From: Dysidea avara
Taxonomy: Eukaryota; Porifera; Demospongiae; Dictyoceratida; Dysideidae
Direction: 5' to 3'
NCBI RefSeq assembly: GCF_963678975.1
Contig: NC_089281.1
Location: 6,969,277 to 7,033,276 of the forward strand
DNA length: 64,000 nt
Shown: piece after piece, positions 416 through 57,017 of the stretch
Numbering within the stretch: position 1 is the first letter of the stretch
Layout of the letters: the number at the start of each line of letters is the position of its first letter
Notes under the pieces: model-generated
The model's database searches: none
Told to the model about the DNA's origin: nothing
Seen by the model: the letters and a program-made list of their open reading frames with translations, nothing else
Program-made: the position numbers and the translations under genes

Positions 416-3400
416 ATGAGTGTTAGAGGACTGTGGGTCATCAGAAGGACGAAAAGTGACACCCCAGGATACGACATTTTATTTTCAAGGTCAGCGATTA
501 ATCGTATGGTCAGCATGAGATATCGGAGGGTATCCAGGACTTCCTGGAAGGGTGAAGTAAAGGGTCTGAGGGGGTGCTTCCCCTGATTGCCAATTGCAAG
601 ACAGGGAATAATGCACACAGACAATGTGCCCTTATAGGCAGTAACTGTGACGTGTATTGTATGTGTGTCTGACTATCTGAAACCTACACAGTGCTGTTAT
701 GCAGCTTATAATTAATTAAGATACTTGTATTCTGGCTAACAACCTACTGATGGCTGACCCAGAACATAAATCTGGGTCATCCAATATAATCTGATTCAGC
801 CCCAAATGGATAGAATTTCTCGACAGATGAATTTTTTGTGATGTTTATAGTTTATTTTCAAGGATGCTCAATGATTCAGAACAGAAAGCTACTATGTGGA
901 TGTTGCAAAAAAAACCCATAGTTTTTCTCGCTAGCAAACTACATGCAGTGAGAAGTATTAGTCAGGAATTGTACTGCACAGCTACATAGTGCAAAGCAGT
1001 AATGACAATAGCTGCTACAAGTAGCAGCAATTTGTCAACTGTGTGAAGCTAGCGCCTACAAGTTAGACAGTAACTGATTTGTGCAACTGTGCTACTTCAT
1101 GTTTGCATAGTTCATTTGAAGTAATAGCCAGAAAAGTGGTAACAACGTTATCATGCTTTGCATTAAACTTGCAGAGACACTGCAGCAGTAGTGTGTCTTC
1201 AAGCATGCTAAAACATTGACAAGTTCTAATATTAAACAGCAAACACAACAGTTAGGAGGGAAGGACAAGGAGCATGCAACAGTGGTAGTATGTGCTAGTA
1301 TTAGTATGCAACAGAGCAACAGTGTGTGACAGCACCATCAGTGATGGTAACATTTGGCAAAAGCATATGAAAGCAGCTAGTACTGTTTAATGCTATTGAT
1401 ACTTTAATATCAACAATGTATGCTCTAATAGAGCAACAGTCAAACACTCTAATAGAACAGTCATTGTGTACAATATTTGAAGGGAATAATGTGCTGCTGC
1501 ATATTCAAGATTTCATAGTTAGTGTCACAGCTATAGCTAGGTCCATCAACCATTGATGAAAATTACCATTGATATATCTAGATGCTAATGACCAATGAGA
1601 AGACGGTTGAATGAAACAATTTGTTTTTATACTTATACACAATGAATATCATAATATCAACCTTACAATATTATGTGATGTGCCAACTTTAGTTGAACAT
1701 CTCTAGTGGCAATATGTGATAAGCAAATGCATGAGACATTCATGCAATGTGACAGCTGAAGCAGATACTGTATGGTAGGAAATTTTGACAGAAGGAAAAG
1801 TTAACGAATCCAAGTCCAGTCACCTCCTGGTTTGGGATTTCTTTCCAGAGTTAAAATGTCAATATGCTATACAGTAGGATACCTTAGTAATTAATAAATG
1901 ATAGACAGCATCATGTGACCTTATCGTTCATCAACAGCATATATTATGCTGTGGCATGTGGTGGCAGCATGTCATCCCATGAAACCACTTGTAACGATCA
2001 CATTAACAATTTTATTTTACACCTGTTTCATTGATGTACTATCCTTCTGTACTCAGTGTTACCATATGAATACACAATAGACCATGTAGTGTAGCGCCCG
2101 ATAATCATTCACTTTTTGATAAAAGCACCAAATTTCTTATGGGGTTTGTTTTATGTGTACTAAGTGATTTTAGAAGGGGAGGTATGTAAAAAGTCCTTTG
2201 GAACCTTATTTTTTGGACCTTGACAACAAAACTATTTGTTTAGATGGAAATCAATCAAGTTTAAAGGCTGGATCTAGTATTAGACCAGTACAAAGCCTTC
2301 AGCTGCAACATGATGGCCCATTAAAATGCCACATGAAACAAATTGTTTTCTCAACCTGGCAATAAACAAAATGATATTTTCAAGGGGTTCTATTAAAGTT
2401 TGCATTTCCAATTTTATTCAATAGCTTCTGTACTCATTGTGATACCATATGATTATACAGTATATCATGTATGTATGTTGCTTGTAATGCTTGATTAAAA
2501 GTTGTGTGTTTTCTGTTTAGACGATTTCCCACAGTAGAAAGAAGGGGAAAATTTGCTAAAGGATCTAATCCAGATAAATTCTTTCCTCTACCAGATGATG
2601 CAGTTGTGGCTGCTGAAGTAGTGAAGAAATGTAGTGTAGCAGATGAGCAAGTATGTTCAACTGGTGTTGTAATACTTTCAAGAGTTTTTCTCACTTAGTT
2701 TATTGAGGAACGAGATGACTGTGCAATTCACAACCAGAAACCAATTTATAATTTGTGCTCTGGCAAGTTATGGCCTGTGGTTTGTATTGAACAAGTAAAG
2801 TGACGGTATGGTTGTACTTGTTTTAGTTCTGTATTTATTTCAGAACAATTTGATATTCTGTGCAGTTGCATTAGTGGAATCTGCAGTTGAAGACAAGTTA
2901 GATGTGCTAGAAATGTGAGTTTCTTTTGTTATTGAAAGTTCATTTGAGTCCCACCCCCAACTCCACAGACCCAGTATCCCAGTAGCATTGTCATTGCTGG
3001 AGGGTATCGCAGAACTGATAGGCACCAACACTGAAGCCATTAGCCAGGTTAGTACGGAATCACATTTGCGACTAGATTTTACAAAACCACTTCAAATCAC
3101 ATAATGAACACAAAGTTGCTATACTACCAATACAGCATGTTCCTTAAACTACACAAGGCTGGTTTTAAGCATCCATTTTGAAGCCTAGCTGGTGCCCACC
3201 ATGTTGGAACTCAACAAGCTGCTATGGTGCAGGAAAAGTGGCATATGCATGCTGCTCACTATTTGAAACCACCTATCTTGAAATTGTTGATGTGTGATTT
3301 GGCTAAATCCAGTAACATTAAATGTTGACTGTTACTCTCATTTGTTTGCTGTATACACTTACAGTCTCACTACAAGATGATGGAGCTATACCAATATTTG

Positions 3401-5290
3401 TGTGTGGTTGCTCCATTTGGATCACTCCTTGACAACAGTGTTAGCAACACAAAGTTGTTGATGGTTAATGGCTACCCTCAGGGACCAATGCCTCGACAAA
3501 AGGTTAACAGACACACAGTACTTTTAGTAACTTGTATGTGTGCTCTATTAGAAATACTGTGTAAATAAACTTAGTATGTAAATTGTGTGCATGCATTTTG
3601 TACATCTACATATGTGTGAAGGTATATTTTCAGTTTTCTATATCACTACAGGTACCAGCCTGGAGACCTGTTGTACACAAGGGAGTGTCAAGGTTGATTT
3701 TACATATCAGAGAAGAAGTAAACACAATGCAATATGATAATCCCAACATACCAGATGATGGAGAAGTGTTTGGATCTGTCATATGCAAGGTATTGTCATT
3801 TCTATACATTGAATAGTGTCATGTCTGAGTGTGTGCATAATGAATTGGCCTAGTAATCACAAGGTAATGCCCAGTTGCTATTATTGTTGACTTGAGCAAG
3901 ATATTTTTTTCACAAAATAAGGATCTGTTAAAAGCCTACCTTCCTGTGGGGTACTAGTCCTGCCTTTGCCCACACTGACACTAATACTAGTGCACAGGTG
4001 TCCTGGTGTTCCTAGATAGGTGTGATCATGTACCATAAAAAAACAGAATTTTGGTAATCGAAGGAAATTTGTCAAACTTAATTCGTCAATAAACTACTTT
4101 ATATTGTTCAACTTATAGTAGTTTTATCCTCCAACTTGCTTCTTGTGTTGATTTGTCAACCTTAAGTCATGCCATGTGTGTGTGTGGGTGTGTGTGCTTA
4201 CATGTATTATGTTAGGCCGAGTTGGATGGATGTCCAGATGTACAGCTCACATTGGCAGTGCCTCCAGGTTGCCCACCTCTGGATAACTTTGTAATCCACT
4301 CCTGTGTTACATCTGCTGACACAAACCCCATAATGATGCAGGTAATGAAACAACACTTTGCTCTATATACCTGTACTCTCTGTAGGGTCCTGGTATTGCC
4401 ACTGCTACACCCATGCTAAGCCGCAAATTACGTTTCTCAACTCTACCAGAACAATTTACCTTATGTAGTTATACTATATCAGATTTGACATTTTTACCCA
4501 TTAGAGGTTTCTACCAGATGAAGGTAACTTGGTCCTACACAGTGAGGGTAGTTGTATTACACAATTGTTCTAGGGTGATTCAAGTCTTAAACTTTTACTG
4601 CAACTTAAACTGGATCAAAATGTCAAGAACAGTTTTGAGAAGTGTGAAGTCCACTTACCATTTTATCACAGGTTTGTGATACACTTTGTGGTAGCTATGA
4701 TACTTATTGTACACTTGTAGAGGTCCTATTGAAAGAGTGGACAACATCTCACCAGCCTCAGTACAACTTTCTTTATCACAAGACAAATATAAGATTATTT
4801 GGAACATTGGTCAGTGGGAATTGTATTTCACTATTTATACTTATTTACAATTCATTGGTATTTATAGGCCAGAAATTTCCTACCAAGAGTCTAGAGTTGT
4901 TCTTACAAGCTACGGTACATTTTCCTGAAGTAATTCCACCAGTACCAGAAGGTGTTGTAGTAGATCCATTTTGTGTTGGACTAAACTCTTATGCTGAAGT
5001 ATGTATAGTAGCTATATTCTAATTGTCTGGTTGATATTAACATTCTACTGAAGGTACACTTCAAACTATCAGACTACATGTTCAGTGGCTGTAGTATTGA
5101 TCAGAAATCAATATCACTTTTCCCGCAGGCCAAGTACAAGCTCCAGATGAGTTAGTGGAAGATATCTAGCAATTTGGTGCAATACCATGACATGTGTATT
5201 TCAGGTCGAGAATGTCAATCACGAGTCTACAAGATTTGGAACTCTCATGGCGATGTTGAATGTACTTTTCCACCACCTAAGAAAGCATAA
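416..5290 (+). CDS. AP5M1: AP-5 complex subunit mu-1, complete 14-exon gene
   Basis: This encodes the mu subunit of AP-5, the adaptor complex of late endosomes and lysosomes. Exons: 416-489, 2521-2650, 2699-2794, 2844-2914, 2969-3047, 3365-3502, 3652-3789, 4216-4341, 4386-4523, 4574-4671, 4721-4809, 4868-4998, 5054-5150 and 5205-5290. All introns are GT-AG, all phases agree, and the sum is 1491 nt (496 aa plus TAA); the human protein is about 490 aa. Exon 1 begins MSVRGLW and its end joins exon 2 to give FSRRFPTVERR, a close match to the family N-terminus. Later family landmarks are LWPVV, APFGSLLD, PAWRPVVHKG, MQYD, GFYQMK, WNIGQKFP and YKIWNS. The mu-homology domain spans about residue 195 to the end. 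A possible polyadenylation signal AATAAA lies near 5473. The family assignment rests on recalled human sequence, and the exon model is read directly. Confidence 0.9.
490..2520 (+). repeat. AP5M1 intron 1, holding a block repeated in other units
   Basis: This is the first intron of the intact AP5M1 gene. From about 760 to 2000 it matches blocks at about 8190-9480 and 27580-28790, with shared runs such as GAATTTTTTGTGATG and GCAAACTACATGCAGTGAGAAG. From about 1890 to 2520 it also matches 29910-31130. The match shows that those blocks are intron-1 debris of other AP5M1 copies. A palindromic motif TGCTCTAATAGAGCA lies at 1421. No coding exon was recognised inside. Confidence 0.7.
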
Positions 5291-5544: not shown

Positions 5545-7713
5545 CTAGTATATTATAATCCTCTTATTTTTCCCATCACTGATGTAGACACTTCCATTAA
5601 GAGCAATAGCTATGCCATGAGGAAGACAAAATTGATTGTTACCAGTTCCCTTGGAGCCAAAGGAGTGAATGTAGTTGTAGTTTTTGTCAAAGATTGATAC
5701 TCGGTGGTTGTTTTTCTCTGTCACTAAGATAAACCCATTAGGATCAACAGTGATAGATGAAGGCCAGGTCAACTGACCCTCATCACTCCCTCTGGTGCCA
5801 AATTTGTGGATGAAGGTACCATCAAGTTGAAATGACTGGATACAATGACCCTCACTATCAACCACTAATAAAGTGTTGTCATGTGTGACAGCAACATCCC
5901 ATGGGTACTGGGTCCATCACCTCGTGACCCAAATGAGAAGCAGTAGGTATCATCTGTTTGATATACTGAAATACGACGATCAGCAATGTACACCTTGTTG
6001 TGATGGACTGTGATACCAACTGGACCATTCAGTTCCTTGTCATTTGATCCCTTCCTTCCAAAATGGAGAATATAGTGGCCAGTGAGATCAAATTTCTGTA
6101 CCCTGTGATTGTTACCATCCACTACATACAAGAAATTATCATCATCAAATGACACTCCACTAGGTGAATCAAACTGCCCAGCACCATCACCACGGCTGCC
6201 AAATTTCCTCACTAGTTGATCTTGTTCATTAAATATGTAAACACAGTGATTGATCCAATCAGCTACTGCCCAGTGATGGTTACTACTAAAAGCCACTCCC
6301 CAAGGTGTACCCATCTTACCATTATCATTGATGACTTTGTCGGACCTGCTCAATTTGGAGTAGTCTATTGAGGCAATGAAGGAAAGGGGACTTCCCTTAA
6401 TGTGCTGTCCTCCAATGGTCACTGATAGTTGCCACCCAGTTCAATGTTGAAGGATCCTGTGTATCTTCCATTATTGTTGTCCTTCACTGTCACTGATTGG
6501 ACATTGCCCCTCCCACTATCTAACTGCACCTTGACCACACCTCCTCCACTGGTGAGGGGAATTCCCTTGACATCTTTAGTAATGATAGTGAACTCAACTG
6601 GTTTGTTTTGTACAACCACAGGAATATCAGCTTCACATTGTGGGGGATACTCTTTAGTATGAACATGGCCAAATTGCGGAAATGGCTTGGGGTCACATGG
6701 TACAAAATAAGAACTGTCAATTTCTTTGGGAACCAAGTAAGTTTTGTAATAAGTGTCAGTCACTTCATGGACATGATGTACTAACTATTTCTCTCCAGAC
6801 AACATCTCATCACAGCTCTCCTCCACTTTACTAGCCAACTCATTCACACTCATCACATGAGCCTTGACACTCTCCACCTCTTCTAGTTGTAATGTCAACA
6901 TCTTTACTTTCCCACTAACTTTGTTGTGAAGTTCTTGTTTCAGTTGTTGACGTTGCTGCTCTACCTTCTGTATCACATTGTCAAAGAACTGATCAATGTC
7001 TTTGTCAGCAATTTTATGTTGTTGTAACACTCTCTCCTTAATGTCAGTGATGTTGTCATGAGCCTGTGACAATTTAGTGATCATGTCATTCAGTGGGGCA
7101 GTGGTCTTCTTCAGTTGTTCTCTGTATTTGGCAGCCATTTTCTTGACAGCACCATGAGAGTGTTGAGCGTGTTCATTTATGGTGCAGTACAGAGAACAAC
7201 ACACCAACCTCTCACAAGTGTCACAGTAAAACTTCAACTTAAGGTCATGATCTGGACAATTGGGAAGTGTCTTCAGAGATTGAGCAGCTTTAGGTTGACT
7301 AGGCTCCTCTATAGGTAGACAATGACATGTTGGTGTGTGTCCCTGCTGCGCTTGTGGAAGGTCTGACATGTCTGGCACATGAACAAGGAACAAGTAACAC
7401 AGAATGAGGTAACTGGATCTTTCTCTACACAAACTTCACAATTCACTTTGCCTCTGTCTTGACGCCTTAGGAAGAAGTCGTCAATTAGATGAGTGAGTGT
7501 AAAATTGGTAGGGAAATCTTTCACTCCTTTGGCTGGTACTTCTGCGATCTTTCTACATTCTGGACATGTGATCTTTTTACCTTTCTCTAACTTGATGAGG
7601 CATTCTTGACAGTAAGAGTGCTGACATGGCAATACTTTAGGACATTTGTATAGCTGTAAGCACACAGGACATGTGGCATGATCTGTGACTCTTTTCAGTT
7701 CTATGGCAGCCAT
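5545..7713 (-). pseudogene. TRIM-NHL pseudogene, unit 1
   Basis: It is homologous along its full length to the open TRIM-NHL copies: RING (7555-7680), two B-boxes, coiled coil, filamin-type domain and NHL repeats down to the final RIIIY and TAG. Comparison with the other copies shows four inactivating lesions. There is a 2-bp insertion near 7311 after HVIVYL, a CAG-to-TAG nonsense after MLSGEK near 6786, a 7-bp deletion near 6430, and a 10-bp deletion near 5915. In-frame losses and a 6-bp insertion in B-box 2 are also present. It lies tail to tail with the intact AP5M1, 254 bp from its stop. It is closest to the 12968-15148 copy, sharing its linker YYKTYLVPKEIDSSYF. Confidence 0.92.
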
Positions 7714-8180: not shown

Positions 8181-8189
8181 GTTAACATA

Positions 8190-9480
8190 GATAAAATTTC
8201 TTGACAAATGAATTTTTTGTGATGTTAATGTTAACTTTATATGCTCAAATGATTCAGAACATAAAGCTACTACTATTCTGTTGATGTTGCAAAAACCAAC
8301 AAATGTACCTAAAATTCTATAGTTGTTTTCTTGGTAGCAAACTACATGCAGTGAGAAGTGTTGTACTGCACAGCTACACAGTCAGCCAAAGCAGTGATGA
8401 CAATAGCAGCTGCAAGTAGCAGCAATTTGTCAACTGTGTGAAGCTAGTGTTGACAAGTTAGACAGTAACTTTACTCATGCAACTGTGCTACTATAAGAAA
8501 AGTGGTAACAAGGTCATCGTGTTTTTCATAAGTCAAGATAACAGCAAGCACAACACTGAGGAGGGAAGGACAAGGAGCACGCAACAGTGGTGGCATGTGC
8601 TAGTACGTATTAGCATGTAACAGAGTAAACACCAACAGTGATAGTAACATTTGACAAAAGTAGCTAGTGTTATTTGATACTATTGATACAGCGTACGCTT
8701 GTATCAATACTAGAACTGGTATCAATATTGTATCAACAATGTATGCTCTAATAGAGCAACAGTCAAACACTCCAATAGAACAGTCATTCATTGTTTGAAG
8801 GGACTAAAGGTAAGCTCACTGATGGATACATATAACATGCTGCTACATATTCAGATTTGTCACAGCTATAACTAGTTCAGAAACCATTGATGAGCATTAC
8901 CATTGGTACATCTAGAAGCAAATTACCATTGAGAAGACATAGTTAAATGAAACAATTTGTTTTATAGTTTTGGAATGGACACATACAGGGGCGGATCCAG
9001 AGTTTGGAAAGAGGGGGGGCACCTTGCTGAAAAACAGTTGAAGACCAAAAAAAAAAGGTCACAAAAATAATAGCTAGTAATCCTTTACCAAATATATCAA
9101 AATAAAATCCTATTTATAGCTTCATAGGTAAGCTACACTGCCTCATGAACATTGTGACTGCTTTATTAGAGTAACTAACTGCTCTATTAGAGTATCTCGA
9201 TCTTGTATGCAATTTCTTGAAGGGGGGGGGGGCATTTGCCCCAAATGCCCCATCCTGGATCCGCCATTGACATAGTGAATATCACTTACAACATTATGTG
9301 ATATGCCAACTTTAGTTGGTAGCTCTAGTGGCAGCATGTGATAAACAAATTCATGTGACAGTGGCAGTAAGTGACAAGAGCAGCATACCATATGGCAGGA
9401 ACTTTTGACGGAAGGAAAAGTCACACTTCATTAGCTTTGATGAGTTAACTTTTGCCGAAAATAGAAAACTTGCCTTTACA
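8190..9480 (+). repeat. Duplicated AP5M1 intron-1 block, unit 2
   Basis: This matches the middle of intron 1 of the intact AP5M1 (about 790-1800) and 27650-28700. Exon 1 and exon 2 are both absent, so unit 2 begins inside what was intron 1. A GGCGGATCCAG-ended MITE has inserted at 8986-9269. The palindromic CTCTAATAGAG motif is present at 8745. Confidence 0.65.
8986..9269. mobile_element. MITE with GGCGGATCCAG ends, copy 1
   Basis: The element has terminal inverted repeats CAGGGGCGGATCCAG and CTGGATCCGCCATTG and is flanked by ACATA on both sides (8981-8985, 9270-9274). The paralogous block near 28490 carries the empty site with a single ACATA. Inside lie the motifs ACTGCTCTATTAGAGTATCT and runs of G. 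There is no coding capacity. The superfamily is not certain; a 5-bp duplication is the only clue. Confidence 0.8.
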
Positions 9481-9554
9481 AATGCTTCATGAAATTATAA
9501 TCAAACATCTGCTACCATTTCTGTCTAATATCTGAACACATTTATAATTTTTTT

Positions 9555-12500
9555 TTATTGAGGAATGAGATGAATGTGCAATTCACAACCAGAAACCAGT
9601 TTATAATTTGTGCTCTGGCAAGTTATGGCCTGTGGTTTGTATTGAACAAGTAAAGTGACGGTATGGTTGTACTTGTTTTAGTTCTTCATTTATTTCAGAA
9701 CAATTTGATATTCCGTGTAGTTGCATTAGTGGAATCTGCAGTAGAAGACAAGTTAGATGTGCTAGAAATGTGAGTTTCTTTTGTTGTTGAAAGTTCATTT
9801 GAGCCCCACCCCCAACTCCACAGACCCAGTATCCCAGTAGCATTGTCATTGCTGGAGGGTATTGCAGAACTGATAGGCACCAACACTGAGGCCATTAGCC
9901 AGGTTAGTATTGGAATCACATTTGTGACTAGATTTTACAAAACCACTTCAAATCACACAATGAACACAAAGTTGCTATACTACCAATGTAGCATATTCCT
10001 TAAACTACACAAGACTGGTTTTAAGGATCCATTTTGAAGCCTAGCTGGTGCCCACCATGTTGTTTGGTGGGAACTCAACAAGCTGCTATGGTGCAGGAAA
10101 AGTGGCGTATGCATGCTGCTCACTATTTGAAACCACCTATCTTGAAATTGTTAATGTGTGATTTGGCTAAATCCAGTAGCATTAAATGTTGACTGTTACT
10201 CTCATTTGTTTGCTGTATACACTTACAGTCTCACTGCAAGATGATCTATACCAATATTTGTGTGTAGTTGCTCCATTTGCATCACTCCTTGACAACAGTG
10301 TTAGCAACACAAAGTTGTTGATGGCTAATGGCTAACCTCAGGGACCAATGCCTCCCCTCAGGGACCATTGCCTCGACAAAAGGTTAACAGACATACAGTA
10401 CTTTTAGTAACTTGCAGTGTTGGGCAAGTTACTTTTTAAAAGTAACTAGTTACATATTACTTGCAACTGAACTATTTAGTTACAGTTACATATTACCCAT
10501 AGAATAAAGTAACTATAATAATATTACATATTATATTACTTTGTGTCCACAGCCTTAAGCTGTCACGTGTGAAACTACCACCTTATCACATGACATAATT
10601 GCGTTGTTGGACAATGTGCAAATATTGGTTATAAGTAACAAACTGGTGAATAAGCTTTATTCAGTAGGCTTCATTACTTCATTGTGGCTAGGCGTTACTC
10701 AGTGGATTACTAACGAGATTAGTAACTTCGTTACTTGTAGTAATAATATTATGCAATATTAGATTCATTACAGTAACTATATTACTTAGGTAACGTGTTA
10801 CATTTGTAAGTAAAGTAACTTGAGTTATATTACCTGTTTTTATAGTGTATTTCGTTATATTACTTAGTTACCACAAAAGTAATAATATTATGTAACACGT
10901 TGCTTATGTAACGCGTTACTCCCAACACTGGTAACTTGTACGTGTGCTCTATTAGAAATACTGTGTAAACAAACTTAGTATGTAAATTGTGTGCATGCAT
11001 TTTGTACATCTACATATGTGTGAAGGTATATTTTCAGTTTTCTATATCACTACAGGTACCAGCCTGGAGACCTGTTGTACACAAGGGAGTGTCAAGGTTG
11101 ATTTTACACATCAGAGAAGAAGTAAACACAATGCAGTATGATAATCCCAACATACCAGATGTTGAAGAAGTGTTTGGATCTGTCATATGCAAGGTATTGT
11201 CATTTCTATACATTGAATAGTGTCATGTCTGAGTGTGTGTATATTGAATTGGCCTAGTAATCACAAGGTAATGCCCAGTTGCTATTATTGTTGACTTGAG
11301 CAAGATATTTTTTCACAAAATAAGGATCTGCCTTCCTGTGGGGTGCTTGTCCTGCCTTTACCTACACTGACACTAATAGTAGTGCACAAGTGTCCCGGTG
11401 TTCCTAGATTGGTGTGATCATGTACCATAAACAACAGAACTTTGGTAATCGAAGGAAGCTTAATTCACCAATTAACTACTTTGTATTGTTCAACTTTTAT
11501 CCTCCAACCTGCTTCTTGTGTTGATTTTGTCAACCCCAAGTCATGCCTTGTGTGTGTGTTGTGTTTGTGTGTGTGCTTACATGTATTATGTTATATAGGC
11601 TGAGTTGGATGGGTGTCCAGATGTACAGCTCACATTGGCAGTGCCTCCAGATTGTCCACTTCTGGATAACTTTGTAATCCACTCCTGTGTTACATCTGCT
11701 GACACAAACCCATAATGATGCAGGTAATGAAACAACACTTTGCTCTATATACCTGTACTCTCTGTAGGGTCCTGGTATTGCCACTGCTACACCCATGCTA
11801 AGTCGTAAATTACATTTCTCAACTCTACCAGAACAATTTACCTCATGTAGTTATACTATATCAGATTTGATATTTTTACCCATTAGAGGTTTCTACCAGA
11901 TGAAGGTAACTTGGTCCTACACAGTGAGGATAGTTGTATTACACAATTGTTCTAGGGTGATTCAAGTCTTAAACTTTTACTGCAACTTAAACTGGATCAA
12001 AATGTCAAGAACAGTTTTGAGAAGTGTGAAGTCCACTTACCATTTTATCACAGGTTTGTGATACACTTTGTGGTAGCTAATGACACTTATTGTACACTTG
12101 TAAGAGGTCCTATTGAAAGAGTGGACAACATCTCACCAGCCTCAGTACAACTTTCTTTATCACAAGACAAATATAAGATCATTTGGAACATTGGTCAGTG
12201 GGAATTGTATTTCACTATTTATACTTATTTACAATTCATTGGTATTTATAGGCCAGAAATTTCCTACCAAGAGTCTAGAGTTGTTCTTACAAGCTACGGT
12301 ACATTTTCCTTAAGTAATTCCACCAGTACCAGAAAGTGTTGTGGTAGATCCATTTTGTGTTGGACTAAACTCTTATGCTGAAGTATGTGGCTATATTCTA
12401 ATTGGTTGGTTGATATTATTGTTCTACTGAAGGTACATTTCAAACTATCAGATTAAATGTTCAGTGGCTGTAGTATTGATCAGAAATCAATATCACTTTT

Positions 12501-12666
12501 CCCACAGGCCAAGTACAAGCTCCAGATGAGTTAGTGGAAAGATATTTAGTAACTTTGTGAAATACATGTGTTTATTTCAGGCCGAGAATGTCAATCACGA
12601 GTCTACAAGATAAGGAACTCTCATGGTGATGTTGAATGTACTTTTCCACCACCCAAGAAGGCATAG
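9555..12666 (+). pseudogene. AP5M1 pseudogene, unit 2 (exons 3-14)
   Basis: Exons 3 to 14 of AP5M1 are recognisable at about 9555-9649, 9699-9769, 9824-9902, 10229-10382, 11056-11193, 11599-11723, 11768-11905, 11956-12053, 12105-12193, 12252-12382, 12434-12531 and 12582-12666. Exons 1 and 2 are missing, and the exon 3 acceptor AG is replaced by a T run. Lesions relative to the intact copy are CGA to TGA in exon 3, a 4-bp deletion plus TAC to TAA and a small internal duplication in exon 6, a 1-bp deletion in exon 8, and GAA to TAA in exon 12. A hAT-like MITE sits in intron 6. It cannot encode a full mu subunit. Confidence 0.9.
10415..10930. mobile_element. hAT-like MITE in AP5M1 pseudogene intron 6
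   Basis: A 516-bp element starts CAGTGTTGGGCAAGTTACTT and ends ACGCGTTACTCCCAACACTG. It is flanked by a perfect 8-bp target duplication GTAACTTG (10407-10414 and 10931-10938). The intact AP5M1 copy has the empty site with one GTAACTTG near 3528. The 8-bp duplication and CAGTG ends fit the hAT superfamily. It holds no transposase reading frame, so it is non-autonomous. Confidence 0.9.
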
Positions 12667-12967: not shown

Positions 12968-15148
12968 CTAGTATATTATAATCCTCTTATTATCATCGTC
13001 ACTGATGTAGACACTTCCATTAGGAGCAATAGCTATGCCACAAGGATAACTAAATTGATTGTTACCGGTTCCCTTGGAACCAAAGGAGCAAATGTAGTTG
13101 AATTTTTTGTCAAAGATTGACACTCGATGGTTATAATATTCTGTCACAAGGATATACCCATTAGGATCAACAGTGATAGATGACGGAGCGTTTAGTTGAC
13201 CCTTATCACTACCCTTGGTGCCAACCCTGTGGATGAAGGCACCATCAAGTTGAAATGACTGGATACAGTTACCCTGACTATCAGCCACTAATAAAGTGTT
13301 GTCAGGAGTAACAGCAACATTGAATGGGTACTGGAACTGACCAGGTCCACTACCTCGCGACCCAAATGAGAAGCAGTAGGTACCATCTGTTTGATATACT
13401 GAAATACGATGATTACGACGATCAGCAATATACACCTTGTTGTGATGGACTGTGATACCAAACGGACAATTCAGTTCCTTGTCATTTGATCCCAGTCTTC
13501 CAAACTGGAGAATGTAGTGGCCAGTGAGGTCAAATTTCTGCACCCTGTGATTGTCACCATCTACCACATACAAGAAATTATCATCATCAAATGATACTCC
13601 ACGTGGTCCATTAAACTGCCCAGCACCATCACCACAACTGCCAATCTTCCTCACTAGTTGATCTTGTTCATTAAATATGTAAACACAGTCATTGTTAATT
13701 TCAGCTACTGCCCAGTGATGATCACTACTGAAAGCCACTCCTCTGGGTTGACCCATCTTACCATTATCATTGATGACTTTGTTGGACCTGCTCAATTTGG
13801 AGTAGTCTCTTGAGGCAATGAAGGAGAGGGGACTCCCCTTAATGTGCTGTCCTCCAATGGTCACTGATAGTTGATGATGTCCTCCCAGTTCAGTGTTGAA
13901 GGATCCTGTGTATCTTCCATTGTTGCTGTCCTTCACTGTCACTGATTGAATGTTGCCCCTCCCACTATCCAGCTTCACCTTGACCACACCTCCTCCACTG
14001 GTGAGGGGAATTCCCTTGACATCTTTAGTGATGATAGTGAACTCAACTAGTTTGCTTTGTACAACCACAGGAATATCAGCTTCACATTGTGGGGAATACT
14101 CTTTAGTATGAACATGGCCAAATTGCGGAAATGGCTTGGGGTCACATGGTATAAAATAAGAACTGTCAATTTCTTTGGGAACTAAGTAAGTTTTGTAGTA
14201 AGTGTCAGTCACTTCATAGATACGATGTACTAATTGTTTCTCTCCTGACAACATCTCATCATCACAGCTCTCCTCCACTTCACTAGCCAACTCATTCACA
14301 CTCACCACATGAGCCTTCACACACTCCACCTCTTCTAGTTGCGTTGTCAACAGCTTTACTTTCCCACTAACTTTGTTGTGGAGCTCTTGTTTCAGTTGTT
14401 GACGTTGCTGTTGTACCTTCTGTATCACATTGTCAAAGAACTGATCAATGTCTTTGTCAACAGTTTTATGTTGTTGTAACACTCTCTTCTTTGTGCCAGT
14501 GATGTTGTCATGAGCCTGTGACAATTTAGTGATCATGTCATTCAGTGGGGCAGTGGTCTTCTTCAGTTGCTCTCTGTGTTTGGCAGCCATTTTCTTGATA
14601 GCACCATGAGAGTGTTGAGCGTGTTCATTCATGGTACAGTAGACACACACCAACCTCTCACAAGTGTCACAGTAAAACTTCAACTCAAGGTCATGATCTG
14701 GACAATTGGGAAGTGTCCTCTGAGGTTGAGCAACTTTAAGTTGACTAGGCTCCTCCAAGTAGACAATGACATGTTGGTGTGTGTCCCTGCTACGTTTGTG
14801 GAAGGTCTGACATGTCTGGCACATGAACAAGGAACAGAAAGAGGTAACCAGGTCTTTCTCTACACAAACCTCACAGTTCACTGTGCCTCTGTCTTGCCAT
14901 CTTAGGAAGAAGTCATCAATTAGATGAGTGAGTGTGAAATTGGTAGGGAAATCTTTCACTCCTTTGGCTGGTACTTCTGCGATCTTTCTACATTCTGGAC
15001 ATGTGATCTTTTTATCTTTCTCTAACTTGATGAGGCATTCTTGACAGTAAGAGTGCTGACATGGCAACACTTTGGGACATTTGTATAGTTGTAAGCACAC
15101 AGGACATGTGGCATGATCAGTGACTCTTTTCAGTTCTATGGCAGCCAT
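12968..15148 (-). CDS. TRIM-NHL protein, unit 2 (726 aa), altered B-box 1
   Basis: This is an intronless reading frame for a RING E3 ubiquitin ligase of the TRIM-NHL type. Domains: RING (Cys15, 18, 30, His32, Cys35, 38, 50, 53), B-box 1 (about 90-126), B-box 2 (about 147-180), coiled coil (about 185-315), filamin-type Ig fold (about 370-455) and six NHL repeats (about 465-726). I chose the ATG at 15148 because every paralogue starts MAAIEL. The frame runs 10 codons further upstream only from a TTG. A 9-bp deletion removes Val-Thr-Cys from FCVTCSLF, so B-box 1 has lost one zinc-ligand cysteine. It could still be active as a ligase because the RING is intact. Its linker type matches the unit 1 pseudogene. 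Confidence 0.93.
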   Translation of the reverse strand: MAAIELKRVTDHATCPVCLQLYKCPKVLPCQHSYCQECLIKLEKDKKITCPECRKIAEVPAKGVKDFPTNFTLTHLIDDFFLRWQDRGTVNCEVCVEKDLVTSFCSLFMCQTCQTFHKRSRDTHQHVIVYLEEPSQLKVAQPQRTLPNCPDHDLELKFYCDTCERLVCVYCTMNEHAQHSHGAIKKMAAKHREQLKKTTAPLNDMITKLSQAHDNITGTKKRVLQQHKTVDKDIDQFFDNVIQKVQQQRQQLKQELHNKVSGKVKLLTTQLEEVECVKAHVVSVNELASEVEESCDDEMLSGEKQLVHRIYEVTDTYYKTYLVPKEIDSSYFIPCDPKPFPQFGHVHTKEYSPQCEADIPVVVQSKLVEFTIITKDVKGIPLTSGGGVVKVKLDSGRGNIQSVTVKDSNNGRYTGSFNTELGGHHQLSVTIGGQHIKGSPLSFIASRDYSKLSRSNKVINDNGKMGQPRGVAFSSDHHWAVAEINNDCVYIFNEQDQLVRKIGSCGDGAGQFNGPRGVSFDDDNFLYVVDGDNHRVQKFDLTGHYILQFGRLGSNDKELNCPFGITVHHNKVYIADRRNHRISVYQTDGTYCFSFGSRGSGPGQFQYPFNVAVTPDNTLLVADSQGNCIQSFQLDGAFIHRVGTKGSDKGQLNAPSSITVDPNGYILVTEYYNHRVSIFDKKFNYICSFGSKGTGNNQFSYPCGIAIAPNGSVYISDDDNKRIIIY

Positions 15149-22800: not shown

Positions 22801-24260
22801 ATAGTGATGGCTATTCAATAACTGAGAGCCCAAGTTTACTCAGCTTCTTAGCTTGTTTTTTTTAAGTAGCACACTTAACTCCTTAAATAAAGTAAAAATT
22901 ACTAAGCCAGTTTACTTTCAAAATGGTATGCACATCCAGCAAAACTATATACCCCTAGATTTAATCTCAGAAAGCCTGATTTTAAAAGATTTCCATAATC
23001 ATGAAAATACCCTAACATTTCAATTTCAAGTTTCTTGGAAGACATCCATGCACCCATGTAGACCTATTAATTTGCTATAGTGCTTTTGTTGTATCATACA
23101 TTGAGGTGCACATCAGGGTGTCCTAGATATTACATCATTGTCTACTACATGCATCAAGTTCTACCAACCATAGGATCTGGCTTCACCTAATTACAACATC
23201 AACACTCAGGACACAGCCTTAATTAAATGACCATAACCAGTTTCACAACTATTTTAACTGTTTTATATTGTTGTGAACTTAGACAACTTTATATAATTTA
23301 AGTAGACTTTCACCTGGTCAGTGGTCACCCCCCAAATTCTTGATCCCCCCAAAGGAGAAATCCTAGAATAAACACTGAACGAGCTTAAAATTCTAATAGA
23401 AAGCTTAAATGAGAAGCTGTTACAGCTTCTTTGGCTAGATGGATCAATTCCAACAGATAAAAATTAGTATTAAGCTTTGCTACTAATATCTTCCACATGC
23501 AGTATTCACTAAGTTGTGACCTTTACTACTTTCTTGTAGTGAACGTCACTACATAAAAATGGTGAGTATTGTGGCAGACATTAGTAGTGACATTTACCAC
23601 TTTGTTTTTATTATGTATACTCTGTTCCTGTACACAAGCTGCTAGCCTATAGTAGTTAATGAATGATCTATAGACTGCTGCAAAAAAGTGTGGAGTTAAT
23701 TTTCTCTTTTAATTTGTGGCCCATTGAATGTAATCACCAACGGTGTGATGATCATGAGGTATGCAGTTTGATTTGCTTCATGTTTAAAAAGAAGCTAGGT
23801 GGTCATCATCAATCCGATGCAACTGTGATAACCACCAGTGTTAGCCATGAAAATACCGCTATATACCCATACATGATGCAATACATTGCCTGTGATACCA
23901 TGCACAGTTACCCATGATACCAGTTACCTGTCATACCACTGTTATCCCATGATATACAATAGTTACCCATGATACTATTGCACTTATCCAAGATACCTGT
24001 TACCCCATGATACCCTACATATGAATAAGCATTTATAAATTCATCTACATGTGGAACAGAAGCTATACACGTATACCAGCTGCATGCAATAAATAATTTG
24101 ACAGCTATTAAAGAATTTAAAGTCACTAGGAATTCTAAGAGACTCTGTAAACACATTATAGTTCTTTAATTATGTATATTTTATTATGCTGCATGCAAGC
24201 TCCATATATAATTTTTAATGATTGTACCTAGACATGTGCATTGATAGCACCTAATACACA
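22801..24260. other. Unassigned DNA with a short degenerate satellite
   Basis: No gene was recognised. From about 23890 to 24020 there is an imperfect array of units resembling TTACCCATGATACC, repeated about seven times with variable spacing. In the array logic an AP5M1 copy would be expected here, before the TRIM relic, but no exon is visible. Confidence 0.45.
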
Positions 24261-24424
24261 GTTATCCTCTTATTAAGATGGTCACTGATGTAGACATTTC
24301 CATTATGAGCAACAGCTTTGCTACGAGGTTGATTAAACCAATTGTTACAAGTTCCCTTGGAGCCAAACTGAGGTGGAATATTGGCAGTGGTGTTTGTCAA
24401 AAATTAACACTTGATGGTCATAAC

Positions 24425-25248: not shown

Positions 25249-25394
25249 ATAACAGTAGTACAATCCTGTTACAATCAACAGTTAGAGATGATGGTAAGTT
25301 CAATTAACTCTTATTGCCAATACCAGACTTGTGGATGAAGATACCATCAAGTTGAAATGAGTGGATACAGTGACCATAAGTGTTAGTTATATAC

Positions 25395-48350: not shown

Positions 48351-48359
48351 ACCAAAATC

Positions 48360-52761: not shown

Positions 52762-53156
52762 AAGTGGACTATAGAGGGAGCGCAAAAATACCTAGTAAGT
52801 TATCCTAACTTTGTAATCCACTCTTGTGTTACGTATACTGACACAACCCCATAGCTATGCGGGTAACAAAGCAACAGTTTACAGTAACTATACTTGAATA
52901 ACTAGAACAATTTACCTTATGTAGTTATACTATATCAGATTTGACATTTTTACCCATTAGAGGTTTCTACCAGATGAAGGTACGTAACTTGGTCCTATGC
53001 AGTGTGGGTAGTTGTATTACACAATTGTTCTAGAGTGATTCAAGTCTTAAACTTTTACTGCATCTTAAACTGGATCAAAATGTCAAGAACAGTTTTGAGA
53101 AGTGTGAAATCCACTTACCGTTTTATCACAGGTTTGTGATACACCTTGTGGTATGG

Positions 53157-53475
53157 TATGTACGTGTTGAGCTGAACCCTCAAAACTCAAGGATAGTTTT
53201 TGAAATTTGGCTCATTTGCAGTACTACTTGACTTGTTATAAATTGTTTCATTCAAACGTTTGACACAATATTTATGACCAATCAAAATTTTCACCATACA
53301 TTTCCAATGGGATCTGTTGCATCCTTTTCCCGAACTTGTAAACCATACATATATGCTGTTGACACCTTTACTGACACCACTAATCATATGGTTGGCTGAA
53401 ATGTTATTTCTCTTTAGAAAAAATCTTTTCTTTTTAAACTTTTTCTCAGGGCTCAGCTCAACTTGTACATGCATG
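53157..53475. mobile_element. TIR element, copy 2, in AP5M1 relic
   Basis: The ends TGTACGTGTTGAGCTGAACC and its diverged inverse bracket sequence related to 30100-30474 in opposite orientation (shared AAATTTGGCTCATTTG). The intact AP5M1 intron near 4690 lacks it. Confidence 0.65.
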
Positions 53476-53587
53476 CTATAGCTATTGTACACTTGTAGAG
53501 GTCCTATTGAAAGAGTGGACAATATCTCACCAGCCTCAGTACAACTTTCTTTATCGCAAGACAAATATAAGATTATTTGGAACATTG

Positions 53588-54230
53588 CATTGATCAGTAT
53601 ATATATAGCTAGCTAGGAATTTTTCTTTGATTAAAATACTATTTGTGATTGGATTTTGGAAAAACAATCCAAATTGCACATGAGATTAAGAAGTCAGATC
53701 AGCATAACTTGCCAAAGATAGCAAGCATGCATATGAAATGTACACAAGAGATGCGTCAATCTATTACCACTTTCAGTATTAGTAGCTGCTTGTACAGTTT
53801 TGCACCAAATAAGATAAAAAATCTGAGCAGTTGGACAAGCAAAGTAGCATCATGAGTACTCACAAAGGAGAGGAGGGTGGGGGGTGGCAAAGTGGACAAG
53901 AGATAGACTTCAATATGGAGGCAGACCACAATTGAAGTCCATGCAGACACAAAAATTACAGGGCTGTGCTGGCTTCTTAGTGGCTGATATGCAGCAAAAT
54001 CTACAGAAAAAATGTTTGGCGAACATTATCAGGCCATCCACCAGTAAACCACTGATTCTTGCTAAGCCAGAAACTGCCATTCGAGCTCCACACCACCCAG
54101 GAAAGACATCTGTTAAAACTAGCCTTGAGCAGTTTGAATTACGATGATGTATAGCTATCCACTGGTGGTGTTAGTTTGATTTTGTCTAGGATTGGTTATG
54201 TAAAATCTGGTCACATTTGTATTTCTACAG
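53588..54230. other. Insertion between AP5M1 relic exons 11 and 12
   Basis: About 640 bp replace the 58-bp intron of the intact gene. Frames of 64-87 codons exist but none is recognised. The origin is unknown. Confidence 0.4.
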
Positions 54231-54824
54231 AAATTTCCTACAATGAGTCTGGAGTTATTCTTATAAGCTACAGTACATTTTCCTGAAGTAATTTCACTAG
54301 TACCAGAAGGTGTTGTAGTAGATCCATAGTTGTGTTGCACTAAACTCTTATGCTGAGTATGCATAGTAGCTATATTTTAATTGTTTGGTTGATATTATAA
54401 TGTTCTACTAAAGGTACATTTCAAACTAGTTCAGTGGCTGTAGTATTCACCAGAAACCAATATCACTTTTCCCACAAGCCAAGTACAACCTCCAGATGAC
54501 TTAGTAATATTTAGCAATTTTGTGAAATACATGTGTGTATTTCAGGCCGAGAATATATGGAATTCTCATGGTGATTTTGAATGTATTTTTCCACCACCCA
54601 AGGAGGCATAGTTATTCACTATTTTAATACCTTTAAATATTTGGACTTTGTGCAGCTCATACACAAAACCATTCCGACATGGCTTCATGGGCAACACAGA
54701 AGAATACCATTGTTTTACAGAAAATCTGATTCAGTGCATAAAATGCAGTTGTGCAAACAAATAGCGTACAATTACTACAATAAAAAGATAGCTACCTATT
54801 TTATATTATATGCTACATGATACA

Positions 54825-57017
54825 CTAGTATATTGTAATCCTATTGTTATTGTGGTCAGTGATGTAGACACTTCCATTAGGAGCAATAGCTATGCCACGA
54901 GGCTGGTCAAATTGATTGTTAACAGTTCCTTTGGAGCCAAAGGAGTGGATGTGATTGTAGTTTTTGTTGAAGATTGACACTCGATGATTATTACGCTCTG
55001 TCACAAGGATAAACCCATTAGGATCAACAGTGATAGATGATGGAAAGTTCAACTGACCCTCATCACTACCCCTGGTGCCAAACTTGTAGATGAAGGTACC
55101 ATCAAGTTGAAATGACTGGATACAGTCAGCCTCACTATCAACCACTAATAAAGTGTTGTCAGGAGTAACAACAACATCCCATGGGAACCGGAACTGACCA
55201 GGTCCATTACCTCGTGACCCAAATGAGAAGCAGTAGGTACCATCTGTTTGATATACTGAAATACGATTATTGCCACGATCAGCAATGTATACCTTATCGT
55301 GATGGACTGTGATGCCAACAGGTTTTTTCAGTTTATTGTCATTTGATCCCTTCCTTCCAAACTGGAGAATATACTGACCAGAAACGTCAAATTTTTGCAC
55401 CCTGTTGTTGCTACATTCTACCACATACAAGAAATTATCATCATCAAATGATACTCCAAGTGGTTTATTAAACTGGCCAGCACCATCACCATGGCTGCCA
55501 AATTTCCTCACTAGTTGATCTTGTTCATTAAATATGTAAACGCAGTGATTGGTAGTGTCAGATACTGCCCAGTGATGGTGACTGCTGAAAGCCACTCCCC
55601 AAGGTTCACCCATCTTACCATTATCATTGATGACTTTGTTGGACCTGCTCAATTTGGAGTAGTCTCTAGAAGTAATGAAGGAAAGGGGACTCCCTTTAAT
55701 GTTCTCTTCTCCAATAGTCACAGATAGTTGATGAGGGCCTACCAGTTCAGTGTTGAAGGATCCTGCGTATCTTCCATTATTGTTGTCCTTCACTGTCACT
55801 GATTGGATGTTGCCCCTCCCACTATCCAACTGTACCTTGATTAGGCCTCCTCCAGCAGTGAGAGGAGTTTCCCTGACATCTTTTGTGGTAATAGCAAATT
55901 GAACCCTTTGACCAGCAAACATTGTTGGTGGAATATCAGCAATTTCATATTGGGAAGGGTGTGGGTTAACAATTTGGCCCAACCGTGGAAATGGGTGATT
56001 GTGTGAAGGAGTAAAACAAAATGCATATGATTCTACAGGATCAGTTTGAAGTTTATTGTAAGTGCCAGTCACTTCATGGACACGATGTACTAACTGTTTC
56101 TCTCCAGACAACATTTCATCATCACAGCTCTCCTCCACTTCACTAGCCAACTCATTCACACTCATCACATGAGCCTGGACACTCTCTACCTCTTCTAGTT
56201 GTGATGTCAGCAGCTTTACTTTCTCACTAACTTTGTTGTGGAGTTCTTGTTTCAGTTGTTGACGTTGCTGCTCTACCTTATGTATCACACTGTCAAAAAA
56301 TTGATCCATTTCTTTGTCAGCAATTTTCTGTTGTTGTAACACTCTTTCCTTTCTTTCAGTGATGTTGTCATGAGCCTGTGACAATTTAGTGGTCATGGCA
56401 TTCAGTGGGGCAGTGGTCTTCTTAAGTTGCTCTCTGTGTTTGGAAGCTATTTTCTTGATAGCACCATGTGAGTGTTTAGCATGTTCATTTATGGTACAGT
56501 AGACACACACCAACCTCTCACAAGTGTCACAGTAAAATTTCAACTCAAGGTCATGATCTGGACAATTGGGAGGTGTCTTCTGAGGTTGGGCAGCTTTAGG
56601 TTGACTAGGCTCCTCTAGATAGACAATGACATGTTGGTGTGTGTCCCTGCTGCGCTTGTGGAAGGTCTGACATGTCTGGCACATGAACAAGGAACAAGTA
56701 ACACAGAATGAGGTAACTGGGTCTTTCTCTACACAAACTTCACAGTTCACTTTGCCTCTGTCTTGTCGCCTTAGGAAGAAGTCATCAATTAGATGAGTGA
56801 GTGTAAAATTGGTAGGGAAATCTTTCACTCCTTTGGCTGGGATATCTGTTATCTTTCTACATTCTGGACATGTGATCTTTCTATCTTTCTCTAACTTTAT
56901 GAGGCATTCTTGACAGTAAGAGTGCTGACATGGCAACACTTTGGGGCTTTTGTATAGTTGTAAGCACACAGGACATGTGGCATGATCTGTGACTCTTTTC
57001 AGTTCTATGGCAGCCAT
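54825..57017 (-). CDS. TRIM-NHL protein, unit 4 (730 aa)
   Basis: This is an intact intronless frame starting MAAIELKRVTDHATCPVCL. RING Cys15, 18, 30, His32, Cys35, 38, 50, 53; B-box 1 Cys92, 95, 105, 108, 113, 116 with His120 to 129; B-box 2 from Cys152/His155 to His184; coiled coil about 190-320; filamin-type domain about 375-460 (DSGRGNIQSVTVKDNNNGRY); six NHL repeats about 470-730, ending RITIY. All expected zinc ligands are present. Likely a cytoplasmic E3 ubiquitin ligase with an RNA- or protein-binding propeller, as known for TRIM2/3/32/71 relatives; orthology to any one of these cannot be settled. It shares its linker type with the copy at 34193. Confidence 0.95.
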   Translation of the reverse strand: MAAIELKRVTDHATCPVCLQLYKSPKVLPCQHSYCQECLIKLEKDRKITCPECRKITDIPAKGVKDFPTNFTLTHLIDDFFLRRQDRGKVNCEVCVEKDPVTSFCVTCSLFMCQTCQTFHKRSRDTHQHVIVYLEEPSQPKAAQPQKTPPNCPDHDLELKFYCDTCERLVCVYCTINEHAKHSHGAIKKIASKHREQLKKTTAPLNAMTTKLSQAHDNITERKERVLQQQKIADKEMDQFFDSVIHKVEQQRQQLKQELHNKVSEKVKLLTSQLEEVESVQAHVMSVNELASEVEESCDDEMLSGEKQLVHRVHEVTGTYNKLQTDPVESYAFCFTPSHNHPFPRLGQIVNPHPSQYEIADIPPTMFAGQRVQFAITTKDVRETPLTAGGGLIKVQLDSGRGNIQSVTVKDNNNGRYAGSFNTELVGPHQLSVTIGEENIKGSPLSFITSRDYSKLSRSNKVINDNGKMGEPWGVAFSSHHHWAVSDTTNHCVYIFNEQDQLVRKFGSHGDGAGQFNKPLGVSFDDDNFLYVVECSNNRVQKFDVSGQYILQFGRKGSNDNKLKKPVGITVHHDKVYIADRGNNRISVYQTDGTYCFSFGSRGNGPGQFRFPWDVVVTPDNTLLVVDSEADCIQSFQLDGTFIYKFGTRGSDEGQLNFPSSITVDPNGFILVTERNNHRVSIFNKNYNHIHSFGSKGTVNNQFDQPRGIAIAPNGSVYITDHNNNRITIY

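What the first reader, a model, noticed from the sequence alone, without database searches (positions are those of the whole stretch)
416..57017. Co-duplicated AP5M1/TRIM-NHL array with opposite fates
At least three convergent AP5M1(+)/TRIM-NHL(-) pairs, plus a TRIM relic without its partner, can be traced. Exactly one AP5M1 is intact and three are broken, while three TRIM genes are open and two are dead. The only intact AP5M1 is paired with a dead TRIM. This fits purifying selection to keep a single adaptor gene and retention of extra TRIM ligases. Linkage of these two genes in one amplification unit is not something I know to be described.
Basis: partly seen in the sequence, partly recalled or inferred. 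Interest (0 to 1): 0.75.

Follow-up and report, generated by a model that had tools for sequence, protein, structure and literature searches.

The report
Diversifying TRIM-NHL genes dragging AP5M1 fragments
A large family of animal ubiquitin ligases keeps duplicating and changing the residues on the predicted binding face of its propeller, much as some immune genes do, while pieces of a neighbouring trafficking gene were copied along as dead passengers.

Summary
The units are real. The window holds one complete AP5M1 (14 exons, 506 aa), three truncated AP5M1 copies, three open TRIM-NHL genes (B, C, D) and two dead ones.

The "opposite fates" has a simpler cause. Detectable homology of copies B and C begins inside AP5M1 intron 1, and exon 1 exists only in unit A, so B (sharp junction) and probably C began without it. 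AP5M1-A is constrained; the copies look neutral. In the own-genome search AP5M1 occurs at five places, all on this contig; the fifth is a full inverted copy with an 8-bp deletion.

The TRIMs are the finding. About 98 open frames of at least 700 aa with NHL or TRIM matches were listed. For B, C and D whole-frame dN/dS is 0.36-0.45, yet 22 of 24 propeller positions equivalent to LIN-41's RNA-contact positions differ (rest of NHL 63 of 240), with dN/dS 3.4. Three clades elsewhere, not used to choose the positions, gave 5.0, 5.8 and 9.9.

Best reading: an NHL-propeller counterpart of fish finTRIMs, probably recognition proteins. The immune role is inferred. A raised substitution rate confined to those codons is not excluded.

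The parts
416..5290 (+). AP5M1-A, complete, 14 exons: 416-489, 2521-2650, 2699-2794, 2844-2914, 2939-3047, 3365-3502, 3652-3789, 4216-4341, 4386-4523, 4574-4671, 4721-4809, 4868-4998, 5054-5150, 5205-5290
   Evidence: Hand-placed splice model, one 506-aa frame; PF00928 E 4.9e-20; 8yab_E AP-5 mu-1 E 2.3e-79
5548..7713 (-). TRIM-NHL A, dead; mosaic of D-like and B-like tracts
   Evidence: Frameshifts, stop and deletions in the alignment; tblastn pieces in 3 frames; informative-site tracts
8184..8187 (.). A/B tandem junction: TRIM-upstream sequence shared with unit D runs to 8187; the copy of AP5M1 intron 1 begins at 8184
8184..12665 (+). AP5M1-B remnant: part of intron 1 plus exons 3-14, no match to exon 1 or 2; frameshifting deletions in exons 6 and 8; about 500-bp repeat element at 10411-10930
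12968..15148 (-). TRIM-NHL B, open; 3-residue deletion in the first B-box removes one cysteine
24254..27107 (-). TRIM-NHL E relic, partly inverted, many stops
27588..32244 (+). AP5M1-C remnant: part of intron 1 plus exons 2-6
34193..36379 (-). TRIM-NHL C, open
52806..54610 (+). AP5M1-D remnant: part of exon 8 to exon 14, interrupted
54825..57017 (-). TRIM-NHL D, open; RING, B-boxes, filamin, six-bladed NHL propeller
54828..55619 (-). NHL propeller of TRIM D (264 codons analysed) with the 24 face codons: P-1, P+1, D+1, D+2 of each blade
   Evidence: coordinates are the last 264 sense codons of the frame, by arithmetic

Best explanation
The window is part of one cluster of a very large, single-exon TRIM-NHL family (RING, B-boxes, filamin, NHL) in an animal genome. 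These genes multiply by local tandem and inverted duplication. Shown for the genes analysed: the RING-to-coiled-coil part and most of the propeller stay constrained, while the positions at the top of the propeller (P-1, P+1, D+1, D+2 of every blade), equivalent to the RNA-contact positions of LIN-41, change to different amino acids far faster than the rest. Shown: AP5M1 is a neighbour with one intact copy; in unit B (and, inferred, C) the duplication edge lies in its intron 1, so its 3' part was copied along with the adjacent TRIM, and the copies look neutral. Inferred: each TRIM is a ubiquitin ligase whose variable propeller face binds a different target, and the target pressure is an arms race (viruses, mobile elements or other non-self), by analogy with TRIM5 and finTRIM.
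For: In the window, B/C/D differ at 22 of 24 face codons against 63 of 240 other NHL codons (Fisher 3e-10). Fixed-sites ML gives omega_face 3.39 against 0.38, 2dL against omega_face=1 of 24.2, p 9e-7. The 14 equivalents of the DrLIN41 contact residues named in PMC5908797 differ at 13 of 14 against 72 of 250, omega 3.1, p 2e-4. 100 random sets of 24 NHL codons reach at most omega 1.14. Three clades elsewhere, not used to choose the positions: C8 5.0 (p 2e-7), C10 17.6-17.9 Mb 5.8 (p 9e-10), C6 9.9 (p 3e-16), rest 0.52-0.57. RING-B-box-CC pN/pS is 0.22-0.34 in the 4 clades. Codons 1-3 away from the face have pS close to the rest (0.265/0.250, 0.074/0.054, 0.066/0.059, 0.029/0.049). Over 26 genes, mean column entropy is 2.62 at the face and 1.02 elsewhere; 16 of the 24 most variable NHL columns are face columns. 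The predicted propeller puts the 24 positions in the b-c loops (12), at the end of the d-a loops (6) and at the start of strand a (6); nearest folds are Thin, TRIM71 and TRIM2 NHL domains. AP5M1 as passenger: exon 1 only in A within the window, edges in intron 1, branch omegas, 5 places in the genome.
Against: If the face codons get their own overall rate, omega_face above 1 is weak per clade: p 0.096 for B/C/D with F3x4 frequencies, 0.035 and 0.008 with two other frequency models; for the four larger clades p 0.72, 0.0099, 0.053 and 0.06, combined p 0.007. Face pS itself is higher than elsewhere in three of four clades (0.373, 0.110, 0.123 against 0.250, 0.059, 0.049), lower in C8 (0.037 against 0.054). 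So part of the signal could be a higher substitution rate confined to those codons. With 5 window-clade genes omega_face falls to 2.1, and pairwise C-D at the face is 0.92. In C6 the neighbours of face codons also have pN/pS 1.86. I chose the 24 positions after seeing the B/C/D alignment as well as the paper, and chose the clades from the tree after seeing the 26-gene alignment; only the positions were fixed beforehand. A column scan of the whole protein puts 13 face columns in the top 24; several N-terminal and linker columns also rank high. Gene conversion, and pS that differs between domains of the same genes (C6: 0.155 in RING-CC, 0.043 in NHL), violate a single tree.
Confidence: 0.8

Rival explanations
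1. One reading: AP5M1 and TRIM amplify as one unit and selection afterwards keeps one AP5M1 and several TRIMs.
For: AP5M1-A omega 0.10 against copies near 1. A2 is a full copy with exon 1 that carries an 8-bp deletion in exon 5, so for A/A2 a real choice of one working copy may have happened.
Against: Homology of B and C starts inside intron 1 and exon 1 is absent; D lacks exons 1-7. AP5M1 is at 5 places against about 98 frames, and no AP5M1 exon is found in the 90 kb of flank fetched, which holds several more TRIM copies (one piece of intron 1 does match L033:501-651).
Confidence: 0.15
2. The face positions are merely unconstrained loop residues (relaxed selection), and the TRIM copies are redundant.
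For: They lie in loops or at strand starts. Top loops as a whole are only marginally more variable than bottom loops (40 of 91 against 14 of 49, p 0.054).
Against: Omega well above 1 in four clades under the shared-rate model; b-c loops 17 of 24 variable against 14 of 49 in bottom loops, p 7e-4; Tyr/Ser-rich composition.
Confidence: 0.08
3. Raised substitution rate restricted to the face codons (hot spot or targeted diversification), not selection alone.
For: Own-rate fits give r 1.2-1.5 for B/C/D and 2.0, 2.2 and 3.8 in three of the four larger clades; face pS is raised in the same three; NRY codons 61% against 39%, serine AGY 56:22 against 201:220.
Against: C8 clade r 0.13; neighbouring codons are not clearly raised in pS; face third positions are less variable than first and second positions.
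Confidence: 0.12
4. Assembly artefact: the units are haplotigs.
For: A and A2 are 98.2% alike in introns, within the range of alleles in a very heterozygous animal (recalled).
Against: A2 is inverted and on the same 30.7-Mb contig. B/C/D TRIMs differ at Ks 0.27-0.30. A against B/C in intron 1 is about 70-83% while B-C is 86-96%. Copies carry private insertions, and the A/B junction is sharp.
Confidence: 0.06

Closest known systems
finTRIM family of teleosts (PMC2657112; abstract and passages read)
   Same: Large clustered TRIM family (84 genes in zebrafish), nearly identical RING/B-box parts, positive selection on the ligand-binding loops of the C-terminal domain
   Different: Variable domain there is B30.2/PRY-SPRY; here it is a filamin-NHL six-bladed propeller, the frame is a single exon, and the host is an unnamed animal
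TRIM71/LIN-41 and Brat, class VII TRIM-NHL (PMC5908797; passages read)
   Same: Domain order RING/B-box/filamin/NHL; best solved relatives; the paper already describes rapid change of the NHL RNA-binding face between subfamilies
   Different: There the change is between a few subfamilies; here it is among recent paralogues. At most 2 of the 10 DrLIN41 contact residues compared (R564 R581 R611 K628 D629 Y658 R676 R707 R752 R770) are identical in B, C or D (compared by eye, blades taken in order), so the LIN-41 stem-loop mode is not kept
Filamin-type TRIM expansion of invertebrates (PMC2533329; passages read)
   Different: Far fewer genes there, and the passages shown do not report positive selection on the NHL face
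TRIM5alpha PRYSPRY (described in PMC2657112 passages)
   Same: Diversifying selection at the surface that decides target range
   Different: Other fold; compared across primate species rather than as a paralogue array
AP-5 complex subunit mu-1 (8yab_E)
   Same: AP5M1-A aligns nearly end to end, E 2.3e-79
   Different: Nothing unusual in the intact gene; only its truncated copies are odd

Membership tests
Class VII TRIM-NHL (RING-B-box-CC-filamin-NHL) | RING finger | tested here: met
   zf-RING_UBOX and zf-C3HC4 above cut-off in B, C, D
Class VII TRIM-NHL (RING-B-box-CC-filamin-NHL) | B-box zinc finger(s) | tested here: met
   zf-B_box in B, C, D above cut-off; in B the first, B-box-1-like stretch has lost one cysteine of CVTC
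Class VII TRIM-NHL (RING-B-box-CC-filamin-NHL) | Coiled coil between B-box and filamin | not tested
   No coiled-coil predictor run; D has a phmmer match over residues 15-338 to 6qaj_A, transcription intermediary factor 1-beta
Class VII TRIM-NHL (RING-B-box-CC-filamin-NHL) | Filamin domain and six-bladed NHL propeller | tested here: met
   PF00630 and PF01436 above cut-off in B, C, D; AF2 model of D, filamin part at low confidence, and Foldseek hits to Thin, TRIM71, TRIM2
LIN-41/TRIM71 stem-loop RNA binders | Basic RNA-contact residues on the propeller face | tested here: not met
   Equivalent positions carry Q/E, I/S/T, G/A/K, C/R/K and so on; most are not basic. Blade register assumed by order
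finTRIM | C-terminal B30.2/PRY-SPRY domain in the long forms | tested here: not met
   No SPRY/PRY family among the Pfam matches of B, C, D at E 0.001
finTRIM-like diversifying TRIM receptor (works like) | Large clustered paralogue family with positive selection at the ligand surface | tested here: met
   About 98 frames of at least 700 aa (not each checked for RING); omega_face 2.1-9.9, with the own-rate caveat
finTRIM-like diversifying TRIM receptor (works like) | Role in innate immunity, induction by virus | not testable with these tools
   No expression or infection data
AP5M1 (AP-5 mu-1) | Full-length match to AP-5 mu-1 with mu homology domain | tested here: met
   PF00928; 8yab_E residues 1-500

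The most novel reading that the evidence does not exclude
An animal carries a germline repertoire of a hundred or so propeller-based recognition ligases, an NHL counterpart of variable-domain receptors, whose 24 face codons are diversified by a codon-focused process (selection plus a locally raised substitution rate favouring N-R-Y codons), giving Tyr/Ser/Gly/His/Cys/Asn/Arg-rich binding faces that differ at most positions between close paralogues.
Probability: 0.1. Interest if true: 0.93.

Novelty: new variant of a known kind. Interest (0 to 1): 0.64.

Why it matters
TRIM-NHL proteins are known mainly as a few conserved developmental regulators. A genome with about a hundred of them, in which the ligand face of the propeller evolves several times faster than the rest while the ligase part is constrained, would add a second TRIM recognition domain (NHL beside B30.2) to the list of diversifying receptor families. 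It also offers a direct test of what NHL faces bind: close paralogues whose face residues mostly differ. For AP5M1, the case shows how an apparent 'co-amplified pair with opposite fates' arises when duplication breakpoints fall inside a neighbour's first intron.

Tried and rejected
Relatives in public contigs: the search for related loci with TRIM D (viral contigs; genome contigs) and with alignment A1 (genome contigs) found none, so the pair could not be checked in other species. The species and even the phylum are not identified; a sponge is only a guess from gene style.

A 'regional hypermutation' reading was tested through silent changes in codons 1-3 away from the face and not supported; a hot spot restricted to the face codons themselves is not excluded. 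A 'loops vary' reading was tested against bottom loops: all top loops together are only marginally more variable (p 0.054), b-c loops clearly so. Whole-gene dN/dS alone would have hidden the signal (0.36-0.45). The haplotig reading was considered; it remains open mainly for A2 against A. The blade register against LIN-41 is by order of blades; phmmer's best local alignments prefer a shift of one blade, which does not change the 24-position test but would change the 14-residue one. Ten further open frames of the window gave no Pfam match at E 0.01.

Sequences dropped: L001-L008 are the same genes as L009-L016 and were not used. Of 26 genes aligned, 17 entered the four main clade tests; L035b entered an extra window test, L013, L019 and L021 the wide C6 test, and L012, L015, L023, L026 and L027 no omega test. 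TRIM A was left out of the omega tests (dead) and used only for residue comparison. In the AP5M1 branch tests, codons with a gap or a stop in any copy were dropped, and exon 8 of D was not used. The count of 98 rests on capped listings: one search scored 61 of 949 first-look candidates, 60 of 965, 150 of 1681 (NHL family), 61 of 987 (not in the count).
Full report
WHAT IS THERE. Self-BLAST and exon searches show four units, each AP5M1-derived (+) followed tail to tail by TRIM-NHL (-), and one further TRIM relic. AP5M1-A is complete: 14 exons whose edges I placed at GT/AG, one frame of 506 aa, PF00928, match to AP-5 mu-1 8yab_E over residues 1-500 at E 2.3e-79. TRIM B, C and D are single-exon frames of 726-730 aa from MAAIEL with RING, B-box, filamin and NHL domains above Pfam cut-offs. 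TRIM A and E are dead. B has lost one cysteine of a CVTC pair in its first B-box.

WHY ONLY ONE AP5M1 IS INTACT. Exon 1 (416-489) has one BLAST match in the window, itself. Detectable homology of unit B to unit A starts at A 806 and that of unit C at A 755, both inside intron 1 (490-2520). At the A/B junction the TRIM-upstream sequence shared with unit D ends at 8187 and the intron-1 copy begins at 8184. B therefore never had exon 1 by that event; for C, which follows the E relic, this is inferred. D keeps only part of exon 8 to exon 14. On three-copy star trees (A, B and C or D; 314 codons) the A branch has omega 0.10 (2dL against 1: 12.6, p 4e-4), B 0.73 and the third copy 0.81, neither different from 1. 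Taken apart, A/B/D gives omega_A 0 (p 3e-5) and A/B/C gives 0.37, not significant (p 0.27). A search of the own genome with AP5M1-A scored 34 of 34 first-look candidates; its 43 matches lie on C10 between 6.868 and 7.024 Mb and fall into five loci: A, B, C, D and A2. A2, inverted and about 96 kb to the left, has all 14 exons with splice sites but an 8-bp deletion in exon 5. It differs from A at 11 silent and 4 amino-acid codons, with introns 98.2% alike. So one intact AP5M1 in this assembly is right. A2 is the only copy for which 'selection kept one' is an apt description, and it is also the one that could be an allele.

THE TRIM FAMILY. Searches of the genome with the NHL family, TRIM D and a C8 relative list about 98 distinct places with open frames of at least 700 aa (places typed and clustered). 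The listings are capped, so this is a lower bound for NHL-bearing frames; I did not check each for a RING. One search adds a few. Most are on C6 (26), C10 (20), C8 (16), C13 (8), C7 (6) and C12 (5). The window clade continues to the right: a dead copy in L033, frames of 747 and 599 aa in L035 and 733 aa in L036, and an E-like relic across L032/L033. No AP5M1 exon is found in the 90 kb of flank, only a piece of intron 1 in L033. AP5M1 is thus a passenger of a local set of duplications. TRIM A is a mosaic: informative sites unite it with D in alignment columns 701-900 (6 against 0 for B) and with B in columns 1401-1900 (57 against 1 for D). The copies exchange sequence.

SELECTION ON THE TRIMS. 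Whole-frame pairwise omega is 0.44, 0.45 and 0.36 for B-C, B-D and C-D, with upper bootstrap limits of 0.61 or less; outside the face each branch is below 1 (B 0.60 p 0.015; C 0.40; D 0.40). The differences in NHL are not spread evenly. Kumari et al. (PMC5908797, passages read) name the DrLIN41 residues that touch RNA. Counted along the 6fpt chain printed, they fall just before and just after the blade's proline and at the two residues after the blade's aspartate (C563 is one further back). I took P-1, P+1, D+1 and D+2 of the six blades, 24 positions. B, C and D differ at 22 of 24, the other NHL codons at 63 of 240. Shifting the set along the chain by -6 to -3 or +3 to +8 gives 2-11 variable positions. 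Under one silent rate the face has omega 3.39, the rest 0.38 (p 9e-7 against 1); the profile interval is roughly 2.1-5.7, and 100 random 24-codon sets reach at most 1.14. The AF2 model (NHL pLDDT mostly near 90, filamin part poor) places the positions in b-c loops, d-a loop ends and strand-a starts, which in propellers form one face (recalled architecture).

FRESH TESTS. Twenty further genes were fetched and aligned with B, C, D and three frames from the right flank (26 in all). I picked four groups of close paralogues from the tree. The same 24 columns gave: window clade of five 2.12 (p 3.5e-5); C8 clade of four 5.0 (p 2e-7); C10 clade of four 5.8 (p 9e-10); C6 clade of four 9.9 (p 3e-16); a wider C6 clade of seven 4.5; window clade plus L035b 2.0; rest 0.33-0.57 throughout. 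The 14-residue set gave 1.9, 5.1, 7.8 and 11.5, all p below 0.005. In the same genes RING to coiled coil has pN/pS 0.22-0.34. Codons 1-3 from the face have pS close to the rest, though in C6 their pN/pS is 1.86. Face residues are rich in Tyr (15%) and Ser (13%), then Gly, His, Cys, Asn and Arg; 61% of face codons are N-purine-pyrimidine against 39% elsewhere.

RESULTS AGAINST. With a separate overall rate for the face codons the test weakens: window clade p 0.72, C8 0.0099, C10 0.053, C6 0.06, combined 0.007; B/C/D alone 0.096, 0.035 and 0.008 under three frequency models. Face pS is above the rest in three of four clades. Twenty-four codons hold few silent sites, so this test has little power, but a rate increase confined to these codons is not excluded. 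A scan over all 732 scored columns puts 13 face columns among the 24 most variable; N-terminal columns around 142-177 and linker columns also rank high. Silent divergence differs between domains of the same genes, a further sign of exchange.

HOW IT PROBABLY WORKS. Shown: constant ligase part, changing propeller face, repeated local duplication with exchange. Inferred: each protein binds a target with its face and ubiquitylates it or its surroundings, and the copies are kept because their targets differ and change. The nearest precedent is finTRIM (PMC2657112, passages read), with B30.2 instead of NHL. The RNA-contact residues of LIN-41 are not kept, so whether the targets are RNA or protein is open.

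IN PRINT. Searches of the held library for TRIM-NHL with sponge and expansion, TRIM and NHL with positive selection and lineage-specific expansion, tripartite motif with Amphimedon and NHL, NHL repeat with positive selection, TRIM2/NHL/cnidarian, NHL domain with positive selection and paralogs, tripartite motif with Porifera and TRIM/NHL/diversifying selection listed no paper whose title or abstract start describes diversifying selection on an NHL face. The passages shown from PMC3503706, PMC2533329, PMC3137616, PMC6723221 and PMC7895826 do not mention it either; PMC2533329 does note an invertebrate expansion of filamin-type TRIMs. PMC5908797 describes rapid change of the face between NHL subfamilies. 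The library lacks most subscription papers.

Noticed in passing
G000:C12:22422139-22479981: Filamin repeats in one open frame reported as 20,420 aa, about 61 kb without a stop; a frame of 3,280 aa nearby and frames of 6,816, 2,386 and 2,254 aa on C11.
   Followed up: no
G000:C1:48.2-49.4 Mb: At least 16 filamin-domain matches in the capped list, each in an open frame of 181-182 aa, mostly tens of kb apart: another local gene array.
   Followed up: no
window 10411-10930, 33092-33555, 44030-44549: A repeat element of about 500 bp in both orientations, inserted between exons 6 and 7 of AP5M1-B and in unit C, 88-92% alike; further copies in flanks L031, L033 and L034.
   Followed up: partly
window 48308-49807 and 60399-60911: Probable retroelement remnants: two consecutive open stretches of 161 and 337 aa without Pfam match that look to me like a reverse-transcriptase C-terminal part, and an RNase H-like stretch (PF17917).
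   Followed up: no
window 15347-27728 and L032:553 to L033:651: Much of the segment between units B and C, including the TRIM E relic and the edge of AP5M1 intron 1, is found again to the right of the window at about 75-96% identity.
   Followed up: partly
TRIM A/B/C/D, residues about 324-388 of D (linker between coiled coil and filamin): A and B share one linker type (97%); C and D are 51-62% like it and 63-69% like each other, while the windows on both sides are 81-94% alike between these groups: old linker variants, perhaps carried by recombination.
   Followed up: partly
face codons of 26 TRIM genes: Serine at the face is mostly AGY (56 of 78) against 201 of 421 elsewhere in NHL, as recalled for antibody CDRs; cause unknown.
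   Followed up: partly
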